Below are positions 2,883 to 7,694 of a stretch of 64,000 nt of DNA, one piece after another. Within the stretch, counting starts at the first letter, position 1, and every line of letters begins with the position of its first letter. The translations under genes were made by a program, and so were the position numbers. The stretch lies in assembly GCF_007990505.1 (NCBI RefSeq), contig NZ_AP019822.1:1426001-1490000 (forward strand). The letters are read 5' to 3'. The notes under the pieces were generated by a model that ran no database searches, was not told where the DNA came from, and saw only the letters and a list, made by a program, of their open reading frames with translations. Source of the DNA: Pseudoleptotrichia goodfellowii (GTDB taxonomy: Bacteria > Fusobacteriota > Fusobacteriia > Fusobacteriales > Leptotrichiaceae).

Positions 2883-2911
2883 ATATTACATTATTTTATT
2901 GATAATGTCAA
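2883..2911 (-). promoter_or_regulatory. Promoter of tRNA-Gly
   Basis: TTGACA (2906-2911), 17-nt spacer, TAATAT (2883-2888), ending 19 nt before the tRNA 5' end. Upstream of the -35 are A tracts (A7, A6, A6) that also encode the lysine-rich end of the neighbouring membrane protein. Confidence 0.85.
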
Positions 2912-3456
2912 CTGTTTTTTTGATTTTTTCTTTTTTGAATCCCGCTATATATTACTACTATGATTGTTATGACTACTGCTCCTATCCAACCCCAATAAAT
3001 ATAACCTTTACTTACTTCTTCTTCAAAAACCCCTGTTAAAGAATAACGGAATATTTCGGACAACGGTATTTCTTTATTATCTTTCCAAATAAGATAAACC
3101 AAATTAAGCATTTCAGCAATATATATTCCGAAAAATCCCATTATAAAAGAAACGACATAACCTATTATCATTTCAGTTTGAGATAATACATCATTTGCTG
3201 TTTCATAATAAAATTTACTTTTTTCTCTTACTGTATTATAATTTTCATTGATATTTTTTTCTTTATTCTTGACTCTGCAGGCAACTGCAACATATCCTAC
3301 ATATCCTCCGAAATAAATCATTACCGTCATTATAGGATGATATGCATTCATTATCGCTGTGATTAATAGATATATGAGTATAGCTCCTATTAGTCCTGCT
3401 ACTGCTCCTAACATCCCTACCATAATTACTTTTTTACTTGTTTTATTTTTCTCCAT
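2908..3456 (-). CDS. Membrane protein of unknown function
   Basis: 182 residues with four predicted membrane segments, at about 10-32, 38-60, 98-122 and 155-172. The N-terminus and C-terminus (QKRKNQKNS) are basic. The loop between segments 2 and 3 is hydrophilic and rich in Asn/Lys/Glu. I recognise no family. It has a clear AGGAGG ribosome site and follows the DKNYY-repeat gene by 39 nt, so it is probably the last gene of that transcript. Its 3' end overlaps the -35 of the tRNA-Gly promoter. Confidence 0.75.
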   Translation of the reverse strand: MEKNKTSKKVIMVGMLGAVAGLIGAILIYLLITAIMNAYHPIMTVMIYFGGYVGYVAVACRVKNKEKNINENYNTVREKSKFYYETANDVLSQTEMIIGYVVSFIMGFFGIYIAEMLNLVYLIWKDNKEIPLSEIFRYSLTGVFEEEVSKGYIYWGWIGAVVITIIVVIYSGIQKRKNQKNS

Positions 3457-3495: not shown

Positions 3496-5295
3496 TTATT
3501 TCCCTTTAAAATATTTTCTGTTTTTATCTTCAGCATTGTCATTATCAATCACTTTAAAGCTTTCTGTGTCAACATTTTCGACTTTAATGAACTTATTTCC
3601 ATCTCTATAATATATATTATTTTTATCTTTATAATAATTTGTACTGAATATAGGTGTTGAAAGATTTTCAAAAGTTTTCAAATCAACATTTTTGCTCTCC
3701 ATAGGTACTATTTTTATATTTTCCGCTCCTGTTTCTTTAACATCTTCATCATTAATGAGATGAATTCCTTCAGCATTTTTAAATATATTTTCGATGTCTG
3801 AAATAATTTGAAAATTTTTAGAAGTTAATCCCAATTTTTTATTTTTATAATAGATATTACTTTTATCTTTACCGAAAAGAGATGTCGATTCAAAAGTTTT
3901 TCTATCAACTCCTTCCAGTTTTTTATCCTCATAATAAATATTATTTTTATCTTTATAAAATGTATATTCCTGTTGAAATCTTTCGAAAGTTTTAACATCT
4001 GCATCATTTAACACTCTCATTCCATTATCATCAACATAATATACGTTGTTTTTATCTCTGAAATAATTTTCAAATCTTTCAAAACTTTTTAAATCTACAT
4101 TTTTAATCTCAATCTTGATTATATCTGTTTTTTTATTTTTGTCATTTATAATATATAAACCGTTTTTATCTGCGAAAATCCCCTTATTGCCTTCAAATGT
4201 TTTAAAACTGTCGGCATCTATACCGCTTAATTTTTTCTCTTTATAGTAAACATTACTTTCATCTGTCGAAAATTTTTCGTCTAAGGCTTCAAATAATTCG
4301 GTATTTGCTCCGTTAATTCTTTTTATAACCCCGTATTCTCTATAATATATACTTTTTTTATCTCTATAGAAGTTTATATCATCATTAACAGTTCTACGTG
4401 GACCGTAAATAATCATATCAAAACTATCCAGATCCAAATCCTCAATTTTCAGAGGTTTAATTACTATATTATCATTTTCATTTTCAAAATTATATATCCC
4501 GTTTTTATCTTTTATAAAATCATAATCAAATTTCTTGAAACTTTTTCTGTCTATTCCTTTTATTTTTTGATCTTTATAATATATATTATTTTTATCTCCT
4601 GTAATCTCATTTCCAATGAGTGTAAAAGTTTCAGGGTCGGCATTGTCTATTTTTTTTAAATATATCATACTCTCATCGGAATCAATATAAGAGTAATAGA
4701 CATTATTTTTATCTTTATAATAAAGATTTTCGACTAAGTAATCTTTAATAACTCCCTCAAAAGTTTTTAAATCTATTCCTTTTAATTCCAATACGATCAC
4801 TTTTACATCATCGTTTTCATTGTTTTCCTGTATATAATAAAGATTTTTATTATCTTTTATTAAATTATATGCTATTATTTCAAAGCCTTCAGGACTTACG
4901 CCATCAAGTTTTTTTGTTAAATAATAAACACTGTTTTTGTCTCTTGAAAATAAATCAATCACCAAAGTTTCAGGATCTGCTCCTTCCCATTTTTTGAGCC
5001 CTTCATCTGAATGATAATAAACATTATTTTTATCTGCATAAAAAGTTACCATTTTATTTTTATATATATCGAAAGTATCTATATCAATATCGGAATTCTT
5101 TATAATCTCTATATTTGGATTAAAATCAAAATATTGATACGAGTTTTTGTCATCTTTTGCAAAATATTCATCTAAAATCTGAAACTTATCAGAACTTATA
5201 AAATCTATTTTTCTTCCTCGATAATAAACATTGTTTTTGTCTTTTGCGAAAGAGTTTTTCATAGAGCCGAAGGTTTTATTATCAGCACTTTTCAA
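3496..5295 (-). CDS. DKNYY-repeat protein, C-terminal part (out of frame with its N-terminal part)
   Basis: 599 residues built from about 16 copies of a repeat of roughly 30-45 residues centred on DKNNVYY, each followed by a GKKL/GVDxxSF-like stretch. Typical cores are KDKNNVYY, KDKNNIYY and DKSNIYY. This is the DKNYY repeat family of exported proteins; its function is unknown. The frame stays open upstream of the nominal TTG start (5295) to the A7 tract at 5383-5389, where the text reads VEYKYEDIYYVKDKNSVYY, another repeat. No ribosome site precedes the TTG. It is therefore almost certainly the rest of the protein that begins at 6218, displaced by one base. A restored protein would have about 907 residues and some 24 repeats. 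Confidence 0.85.
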   Translation of the reverse strand: MKSADNKTFGSMKNSFAKDKNNVYYRGRKIDFISSDKFQILDEYFAKDDKNSYQYFDFNPNIEIIKNSDIDIDTFDIYKNKMVTFYADKNNVYYHSDEGLKKWEGADPETLVIDLFSRDKNSVYYLTKKLDGVSPEGFEIIAYNLIKDNKNLYYIQENNENDDVKVIVLELKGIDLKTFEGVIKDYLVENLYYKDKNNVYYSYIDSDESMIYLKKIDNADPETFTLIGNEITGDKNNIYYKDQKIKGIDRKSFKKFDYDFIKDKNGIYNFENENDNIVIKPLKIEDLDLDSFDMIIYGPRRTVNDDINFYRDKKSIYYREYGVIKRINGANTELFEALDEKFSTDESNVYYKEKKLSGIDADSFKTFEGNKGIFADKNGLYIINDKNKKTDIIKIEIKNVDLKSFERFENYFRDKNNVYYVDDNGMRVLNDADVKTFERFQQEYTFYKDKNNIYYEDKKLEGVDRKTFESTSLFGKDKSNIYYKNKKLGLTSKNFQIISDIENIFKNAEGIHLINDEDVKETGAENIKIVPMESKNVDLKTFENLSTPIFSTNYYKDKNNIYYRDGNKFIKVENVDTESFKVIDNDNAEDKNRKYFKGK

Positions 5296-5348
5296 TTTTC
5301 TGATGTTTTTATTTTCATTATCTAAATAATAAACACTATTTTTATCTT

Positions 5349-6218
5349 TTACATAATAAATATCTTCGTATTTGTATTCAACTTTTTTTCAGCTGGCATC
5401 AAAGTTTCAATATCTGTTTTTATTTTTAATTTTTTTATATTTCCTGTTTCTTTATCAAAATAATAAACATTATTTTTATCTTTTACAAAGTTGGAAGTAT
5501 TTTCGTCTTTATTTTCTAATATTTTAAAATCTTCAGTATTAATTCCTGTTTTTACTTTTATTATATTATTATCATTCAAATAATAAAAATTGTTTTTATC
5601 CTTTAAAAATTTTCCTCCGATAAAATCATCCAAAGTAGCGAAATCAATCTTCAAATTATTTATATTTTTTAACTCTAACTTATCGTCTCGGAAACTTTCT
5701 CTTTTGAAAATATCTATAGCTAAATAATAATCATCCTTACTGTTTTGAATAATATAATTATCGAAAAATACTTTTATTATCTTAAAACTGTTCGATTTCA
5801 TATTATCTAATTTCTTCCCAAAATAATAGACATTATTTCTATCTTTTGCAAAATAATCTTTTATAACTTCAAACGTTTTATTATCCGCATTTTCTATTTT
5901 TTCAAAATTTTCTTCATATTGGAAATAAACATTGTTTTTATCTTTAAAATAATTATTATCAACTAATTCAAAACTGTTTACATCGACATTTTTTATTTTC
6001 CTTCTTGTATAAATATTAAATACGTTTTTTTTATCTTTAACCACATAATTATTTAATATTATAAAACCTTCGGGACTTAATCCTTCCACTTTTTCTCCGA
6101 AATAATAAACATTCTTACTGTCTTTCGTAAAATCATCTTTTATTGCAAAGTATTCAGCTTTTATTATATTTCCTGTCAAAATAAGTAGTACCATAATTTT
6201 TAATAATTTACTTTTCAT
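5349..6218 (-). CDS. DKNYY-repeat exported protein, N-terminal part (frame broken at A7 tract)
   Basis: 289 residues as read. A signal peptide is clear: a basic start (MKSKLLK), a hydrophobic core, and probable cleavage after IIKA, giving mature EYFAIKDD. Seven DKNYY-type repeats follow (KDSKNVYY, DKNNVYF, DRNNVYY, DKNNFYY, DKNNVYY and weaker copies). After AEKK (residue 279) the frame leaves the repeat pattern and ends within 10 residues, while the repeats continue in the -1 frame. ATG 6218 is supported by GAGGAT upstream. It follows purB by 42 nt and is probably cotranscribed with it. The product would be periplasmic or surface exposed; no function is known for the family. Confidence 0.85.
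   Translation of the reverse strand: MKSKLLKIMVLLILTGNIIKAEYFAIKDDFTKDSKNVYYFGEKVEGLSPEGFIILNNYVVKDKKNVFNIYTRRKIKNVDVNSFELVDNNYFKDKNNVYFQYEENFEKIENADNKTFEVIKDYFAKDRNNVYYFGKKLDNMKSNSFKIIKVFFDNYIIQNSKDDYYLAIDIFKRESFRDDKLELKNINNLKIDFATLDDFIGGKFLKDKNNFYYLNDNNIIKVKTGINTEDFKILENKDENTSNFVKDKNNVYYFDKETGNIKKLKIKTDIETLMPAEKKLNTNTKIFIM
5383..5390 (-). other. A-AAA-AAG slippery site in the DKNYY gene
   Basis: Minus strand GAA-AAA-AAG in the upstream frame, i.e. A-AAA-AAG in the phase used for -1 frameshifting in dnaX. A slip of -1 leads straight into GTT-GAA-TAC and the continuing repeats. I see no strong stem-loop just downstream and no AGGAGG just upstream, so plain loss of one A, phase variation or transcript slippage are also possible. 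Confidence 0.55.
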
Positions 6219-6260: not shown

Positions 6261-7694
6261 CTACACCCTCAATTCCACTCTTTTTTCATCTATTTCATCT
6301 TTATATTTTTCAAGTACAGGATTTATCTCCTTATTTATAAAGTCTTCTGTTTGCTGCTCTGCAAATCCTGTATAATTTTTTGAAACAAGTATTCCTTCCA
6401 TATCTTCTGACTTAAGCCCGAGTCTTCCGTCTTTTATAATTCTATCAATCAGGTTATTCGGCTTTCCATTTATTTTTATTTCTTTAGTTTCTTCCATAGA
6501 AAGTTCTCTTATTATTTCATGTACTTCCTGTCTGTCCATTCCTTTTTTTACGGACTCCATTATGATATTTTCCGTAGCCATAAAAGGAAGCTCTTTTTGA
6601 ATATTCGCTTCTATAACTTTAGGATAAACTACTACTCCGTCCATTATATTAAGCCATATTATGAGTATGGCATCTACTGCAAGAAACGCTTGCGGCACTG
6701 ACAACCTTTTGTTTGCCGAGTCATCCAGAGTTCTTTCAAACCATTGTGTTGAGTAAACCAATGCCCCGTTCATTGCCGAAGACATTACAAATTTTGCAAG
6801 AGATGAGATTCTTTCACTTCTCATCGGATTTCTTTTGTATGCCATGGCACTGGATCCTATCTGATTTTTTTCAAAAGGTTCTTCCAGTTCTTTCAAATGC
6901 TGCAACAATCTGAAATCATTAGTAAATTTATGTGCAGATTGAGCTATATTTGACAACAAATTCAATATTTGAGCATCAGTTTTTCTATCGTAAGTCTGTC
7001 CCGACACTCCCTGCTTTATTTTAAATCCCGCTTTTTCAGTAACCAGTTTATCAAGTTTTTTGACTTTTTCAAAATCCCCGTCAAAAAGCTCTTTAAAACT
7101 TGCCTGTGTTCCGGTTGTTCCCTTCACTCCTCTATATCTCAGTTTTTCAAGCCTGAATTCCAGTTCCTCAAAGTCCATGAGCAATGAATGAAGCCATAAA
7201 GTTCCTCTTTTCCCTACTGTTGTGAGCTGTGCCGCCTGAAAGTGAGTAAATCCGAGAGTTGGAAGAGATTTATATTCAAGTGCAAATTCTTTCATTCTTT
7301 TTATTAAAGCCAACAATTTTTTTCTTATTATGATAAGTCCGTCTTTAATCTGTATTAAGTCCGTATTATCTCCTACATAAGCACTTGTGGCTCCCAGATG
7401 AATTATTTTCCGTGCATTTATTGCTTGCTCCCCATATGTATGAACATGAGCCATTACATCGTGTCTGAGTTTTTTCTCAAACTCTGCTGCCTTTTCAAAA
7501 TTAATATCGTCTTTAAATTTTTTAAGTTCTTCAATTTGCTCATTAGAAATAAAATCAAGTCCTAATTCTTTTTCCGCTTCAGCCAGTATAATCCAAAGTT
7601 TTCTCCATGTTCTGAATTTATTTTCAGGAGAAAAATTGTAAAGCATTTCTTCACTTGCATATCTTTCCTCTAACGGATTTGAATATTTGTCCAA
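6261..7694 (-). CDS. purB: Adenylosuccinate lyase
   Basis: 477 residues, normal for the family. The fumarase/aspartase superfamily signature SSAMAYKRNP is at 281-290 (the flexible loop with catalytic Ser). HLGATSAYVGDN is at 99-110 and GFTHFQ, with the catalytic-type His, at 148-153. It removes fumarate from adenylosuccinate to give AMP and from SAICAR to give AICAR in purine synthesis. The start appears to be TTG at 7694, with GGAGTG 8 nt upstream. It lies 16 nt after purA in an hpt-purA-purB operon, so all enzymes needed for IMP to AMP are produced together. Confidence 0.96.
   Translation of the reverse strand: MDKYSNPLEERYASEEMLYNFSPENKFRTWRKLWIILAEAEKELGLDFISNEQIEELKKFKDDINFEKAAEFEKKLRHDVMAHVHTYGEQAINARKIIHLGATSAYVGDNTDLIQIKDGLIIIRKKLLALIKRMKEFALEYKSLPTLGFTHFQAAQLTTVGKRGTLWLHSLLMDFEELEFRLEKLRYRGVKGTTGTQASFKELFDGDFEKVKKLDKLVTEKAGFKIKQGVSGQTYDRKTDAQILNLLSNIAQSAHKFTNDFRLLQHLKELEEPFEKNQIGSSAMAYKRNPMRSERISSLAKFVMSSAMNGALVYSTQWFERTLDDSANKRLSVPQAFLAVDAILIIWLNIMDGVVVYPKVIEANIQKELPFMATENIIMESVKKGMDRQEVHEIIRELSMEETKEIKINGKPNNLIDRIIKDGRLGLKSEDMEGILVSKNYTGFAEQQTEDFINKEINPVLEKYKDEIDEKRVELRV

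What the first reader, a model, noticed from the sequence alone, without database searches (positions are those of the whole stretch)
3496..6218. DKNYY-repeat gene split at an A7 tract, with a -1 slippery heptamer in the right phase
The N-terminal half (signal peptide, seven repeats) leaves the repeat pattern right after GAA-AAA-AAG. The repeats continue without interruption in the -1 frame, and the downstream half has no start with a ribosome site. The site is A-AAA-AAG, so ribosomal -1 slippage or RNA-polymerase slippage would give the full protein of about 907 residues. With 8 instead of 7 A the gene would simply be intact, so phase variation of a surface or periplasmic repeat protein is equally plausible. 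No stimulator stem-loop is seen.
Basis: partly seen in the sequence, partly recalled or inferred. Interest (0 to 1): 0.6.

Follow-up and report, generated by a model that had tools for sequence, protein, structure and literature searches.

The report
Repeat-protein gene with a homopolymer frameshift
One ordinary secreted-repeat gene of an oral bacterium is read here as two pieces because a run of A's is one base off, most probably an uncorrected nanopore sequencing error or a recent mutation rather than a programmed ribosome slip.

Summary
In 12 Leptotrichia genomes the two halves align collinearly with one uninterrupted ORF of 1068-1216 aa, so this is one broken gene.

Programmed slippage is poorly supported. 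No relative has the A-tract or heptamer at the junction. In-phase A-AAA-AAG occurs 58 times in 53 of 287 sampled ORFs. No stem-loop or upstream Shine-Dalgarno sits at the right distance.

The genome length matches Pseudoleptotrichia goodfellowii JCM16774 (AP019822), a MinION/Canu assembly polished with nanopolish, then Pilon and MiSeq reads. A duplicated malK copy nearby differs from its intact twin by five homopolymer-length changes and only two substitutions, a nanopore residue. Another gene in the sample is split at an A8 tract. The A7 site lies in the lowest 1% for GC, where short reads may be thin.

Best explanation: an assembly error (about 0.6), then a genuine recent frameshift (0.25), phase variation (0.08) and recoding (0.05). 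Raw reads or the DSM 19756 assembly would decide. Interest low.

The parts
5349..6218 (-). N-terminal ORF, 289 aa: signal peptide and seven DKNYY repeats; the last 10 residues are out of pattern
5383..5389 (-). A7 tract (T7 on the + strand), site of the frame break; in-phase A-AAA-AAG heptamer
3496..5388 (-). C-terminal part in the -1 frame, 630 codons open (628 beyond the shared KK), DKNYY repeats to the end; no usable start
6261..7694 (-). purB (adenylosuccinate lyase), 43 bp upstream on the same strand, downstream of hpt-purA
2908..3456 (-). small protein of unknown family (182 aa) downstream; like the DKNYY gene, not found between purB and the tRNA-Gly region in the same-genus genome G001

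Best explanation
This is one DKNYY-repeat gene encoding an exported protein (Sec-type signal peptide) of about 907 residues. It appears in two frames because the assembled A tract is one base short. The most likely cause is a residual homopolymer deletion of the nanopore assembly that short-read polishing failed to correct in this very AT-rich stretch. On this reading the living strain has an uninterrupted gene and no recoding occurs. Shown: the split, the single-gene ancestry, and the presence of uncorrected homopolymer errors elsewhere in the same assembly. Inferred: that this particular tract is such an error.
For: Genome length 2,290,729 bp equals that of L. goodfellowii JCM16774, AP019822 (PMC7029190). 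That genome was made with MinION, Canu and nanopolish, then polished by Pilon with MiSeq reads (PMC6914741). Residual homopolymer-length errors after Pilon are a described problem (PMC8812927). In this assembly two malK copies differ over 1.1 kb by five homopolymer-length changes (four contractions, one expansion) and only two substitutions; one copy is intact (371 aa) and the other is split into three frames. A second gene in the 324-kb sample, homologous to a 410-aa single ORF in G012, is split at an A8 tract, again in the one-base-short direction. The A7 site lies in the lowest 0.9% of 200-bp windows for GC (18% against a mean of 31.5%). The 907-codon frame has no other lesion. In two other genomes whose lengths match the same study (G021 = JMUB5056, G024 = JMUB3936), the homologous gene is also broken, mostly by one-base homopolymer contractions.
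Against: No raw reads and no second assembly of the strain could be examined. MiSeq reads should not be ambiguous here: no 24-mer is repeated within the gene, so the mechanism that explains malK does not apply directly, and thin short-read coverage at low GC is inferred, not shown. Apart from malK and the nuclease-like gene, the sampled 324 kb shows few broken genes, so errors in unique sequence are rare. DKNYY genes also carry lesions that are not homopolymer contractions: a nonsense codon in G032 and one in G021, and an inserted base in G025. Real decay therefore happens in this family.
Confidence: 0.6

Rival explanations
1. The strain really carries a recent one-base frameshift in a dispensable repeat gene. 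The cell makes only the truncated 289-aa exported protein, and the gene is at the start of decay.
For: The gene is absent from the two other genomes of the genus and from the purB locus of G001, so it is dispensable on that scale. DKNYY genes are broken in several Leptotrichia genomes, including by nonsense and insertion.
Against: 630 open codons downstream with no second lesion mean that any real mutation must be very recent. The assembly demonstrably contains artefacts of the same type.
Confidence: 0.25
2. Phase variation: slipped-strand mispairing at the A tract switches the full-length protein on and off between cells; the assembled strain is in the off state.
For: Homopolymer tract inside the gene for an exported repeat protein; everything downstream intact.
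Against: The tract is short and ordinary: seven- and eight-A runs are common in the coding sequence (388 and 115 in the sample), and this gene alone has two A8 and four other A7 runs. No relative has a tract at this place. No allelic variation was seen, because only one strain could be examined.
Confidence: 0.08
3. Recoding: a fixed fraction of ribosomes (or RNA polymerases) slips -1 on A-AAA-AAG and makes the 907-aa protein from the split gene.
For: A-AAA-AAG is a known -1 site (dnaX, from general knowledge) and is in the right phase.
Against: No relative has the site (12 of 12 have one plain ORF). A site with this phase arises whenever an A8 run ending at a codon boundary before G loses one A; 32 of 115 coding A8 runs end at a codon boundary. 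The heptamer occurs in 53 of 287 ORFs. There is no stem-loop at the usual 5-9 nt spacing and no Shine-Dalgarno upstream. Seven A is short for RNA-polymerase slippage (general knowledge).
Confidence: 0.05
4. Two separate genes: the downstream ORF is translated on its own.
For: None beyond the ORF itself.
Against: No start in the first 31 codons and no ribosome site near a start; no signal peptide; relatives have one ORF.
Confidence: 0.02

Closest known systems
Leptotrichia DKNYY-family proteins of 1068-1216 aa (PF13644), e.g. in the genome with the length of L. buccalis C-1013-b (G018)
   Same: Same repeat family; N half 31-273 aligns to 185-430 and C half 3-630 to 436-1068 of one protein; similar signal peptide
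   Different: Relatives are one ORF with about 155 more N-terminal residues, lie in a different gene neighbourhood, and have no A-tract at the junction; identity is only about 30-40%
dnaX-type -1 programmed frameshift (A-AAA-AAG)
   Same: Heptamer and phase
   Different: No spaced stem-loop, no upstream Shine-Dalgarno, no conservation; the shift would join two halves of one protein rather than make a regulated shorter form
Homopolymer-length residue of nanopore assemblies after short-read polishing (PMC8812927)
   Same: One-base homopolymer difference inside an otherwise intact frame; the assembly was made this way and shows it at malK
   Different: At malK the cause is duplication; here the sequence is unique and the cause would have to be thin coverage at 18% GC, which is inferred

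Membership tests
DKNYY family (PF13644) | Pfam profile match above the curated cut-off of 25 bits | tested here: met
   84.2 and 213.2 bits for the two halves
Programmed -1 ribosomal frameshift | Slippery heptamer X-XXY-YYZ in the 0 frame | tested here: met
   A-AAA-AAG at the tract, but common in this genome
Programmed -1 ribosomal frameshift | Stimulator: stem-loop or pseudoknot 5-9 nt downstream, or an upstream Shine-Dalgarno | tested here: not met
   No structure in the first 40 nt; hairpin at 21 nt ordinary for the gene; no purine-rich SD upstream; pseudoknots were not modelled
Programmed -1 ribosomal frameshift | Conservation of site and frame switch among relatives | tested here: not met
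   12 of 12 intact relatives have one ORF and no heptamer at the junction
Phase-variable (contingency) gene | Unusually long or variable simple-sequence tract | tested here: inconclusive
   A7 is ordinary; variation between cells or strains could not be tested
Nanopore homopolymer assembly error | Same assembly shows homopolymer-length errors elsewhere | tested here: met
   malK twin comparison: 5 homopolymer-length changes against 2 substitutions
Nanopore homopolymer assembly error | Raw reads or an independent assembly disagree with the tract length | not testable with these tools
   Reads and the DSM 19756 and F0264 assemblies are not held

The most novel reading that the evidence does not exclude
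The A7 tract is real, and the strain makes the 907-aa repeat protein by unstimulated -1 slippage or by on/off switching at the tract, giving a mix of a short and a long exported DKNYY protein.
Probability: 0.1. Interest if true: 0.4.

Novelty: not a real feature. Interest (0 to 1): 0.12.

Why it matters
Mainly as a caution. A textbook slippery heptamer in the right phase appears automatically when an A8 run ending at a codon boundary before G is one base short, so in AT-rich nanopore assemblies it is not evidence for recoding. The malK twin gives a measured example of such errors in a published complete genome. If the tract proved real, the locus would be a small test case for frameshift tolerance in repeat proteins of Fusobacteriota.

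Tried and rejected
Searches for close DNA relatives in plasmids and phages and in viral contigs found nothing. The genome collection gave only remote DKNYY proteins, with no second P. goodfellowii strain. The two other genomes of the genus lack the gene. A folding z-score of -2.8 for 106 nt looked like a stimulator but is largely a property of the repeat motif: the hairpin starts 21 nt downstream and is ordinary for the gene. Ambiguous short-read mapping inside the repeats as the cause of an uncorrected error was tested and not supported (no repeated 24-mer). The other suspected split genes in the sample whose Pfam domains could be read were adjacent complete genes. The structure prediction of the N-terminal ORF (pLDDT 81) shows a chain of short beta strands with no significant match in the PDB; no solved relative by sequence.

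Full report
What is there. The gene lies on the minus strand. ORF1 (6218..5349, 289 aa) begins with ATG behind an AGGA ribosome site, 43 bp after purB, and carries a signal peptide and seven DKNYY repeats. At the A7 tract 5383-5389 the 0 frame reads GCT GAA AAA AAG TTG and leaves the repeat pattern, stopping after ten more residues. The -1 frame continues the repeats for 628 codons to 3496 without another stop. Both halves match PF13644 well above the cut-off. The downstream half has no start in its first 31 codons and no ribosome site near one.

One gene, not two. Twelve Leptotrichia genomes hold an uninterrupted DKNYY ORF of 1068-1216 aa. In each, the N half aligns to roughly residues 185-430 and the C half to roughly 436-1068, collinearly and to near the C-terminal end, at about 30-40% identity. 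At the junction the relatives have neither an A-tract nor a slippery heptamer. The two other genomes of the same genus lack the gene, and in G001 purB is followed directly by the tRNA-Gly region.

Is the heptamer informative? No. In a 324-kb sample of this genome A-AAA-AAG occurs in phase 58 times in 53 of 287 ORFs. When an A8 run that ends at a codon boundary before G is one base short, this heptamer in this phase follows automatically, and -1 slippage always compensates a missing base. No structure forms within 40 nt downstream; a hairpin at 21 nt is ordinary for the gene. Recoding is thus an unnecessary hypothesis.

Where the sequence comes from. The genome length, 2,290,729 bp, is exactly that printed for L. 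goodfellowii JCM16774, AP019822 (PMC7029190). The same study describes MinION reads, Canu assembly, nanopolish and a Pilon polish with MiSeq reads (PMC6914741). Homopolymer-length errors are the common residue of such assemblies and often survive short-read polishing in repeats (PMC8812927).

Control in the same assembly. About 66 kb from the finding (G000:C1:1497658-1498758) a malK-type ABC ATPase gene is split into three frames. A near-identical copy elsewhere is intact, 371 aa. Over 1.1 kb the two differ by five homopolymer-length changes (four shorter, one longer) and only two substitutions. Natural divergence would show mostly substitutions, so this is best read as a sequencing residue. 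A second gene, similar to a 410-aa single ORF in G012, is split at an A8 tract, again one base short. The DKNYY site itself has 18% GC over 200 bp, in the lowest 0.9% of the sample, where short-read coverage may be thin; this last step is inference. The gene holds no repeated 24-mer, so ambiguous mapping is not the reason here.

Related breaks. In two genomes whose lengths match other strains of the same study, G021 (JMUB5056) and G024 (JMUB3936), the large DKNYY gene is broken, mostly by one-base homopolymer contractions. However, a nonsense codon in G032, another in G021, and an inserted base in G025 show that DKNYY genes also decay for real. This keeps a genuine recent frameshift alive as the main rival.

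Verdict. Assembly error 0.6, genuine recent frameshift 0.25, phase variation 0.08, recoding 0.05, two genes 0.02. The category 'not a real feature' refers to the recoding or switching element, not to the gene, which is an ordinary DKNYY member. The reads of JCM16774 or the independent DSM 19756 assembly would settle it at once.

Noticed in passing
L059:7658-8758 (G000:C1:1497658-1498758), about 7.7 kb beyond the end of the window: malK-type ABC ATPase split into three frames; its near-identical twin at C1:1698788-1699903 is intact. Five homopolymer-length differences against two substitutions: uncorrected errors in a published complete genome.
   Followed up: yes
L058:11374-13214 (G000:C1:1417374-1419214): ORF pair split at an A8 tract. 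The C-terminal part and the end of the upstream ORF match one 410-aa ORF in G012; the upstream ORF begins as a WYL/HTH regulator, so two genes may also have fused.
   Followed up: partly
L041:4101-7449 (G021) and L042:6616-9857 (G024): Homologous large DKNYY genes broken by one-base indels, mostly homopolymer contractions (about five lesions in G021, one in G024), with intact neighbours; the genome lengths match strains JMUB5056 and JMUB3936 of the same sequencing study.
   Followed up: partly
L055:4438-5661 (G000:C1:2160437-2161660): Second DKNYY gene of this genome (407 aa); the family match runs on past its stop codon, so it may once have been longer.
   Followed up: no
G000:C1:1529564-1531101 (L060/L100): Two adjoining ORFs that both look like histidine-type phosphatases (RHG and VGHD motifs), overlapping by 39 bp, the second without a start near its beginning: a fused or frameshifted tandem pair.
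   Followed up: no
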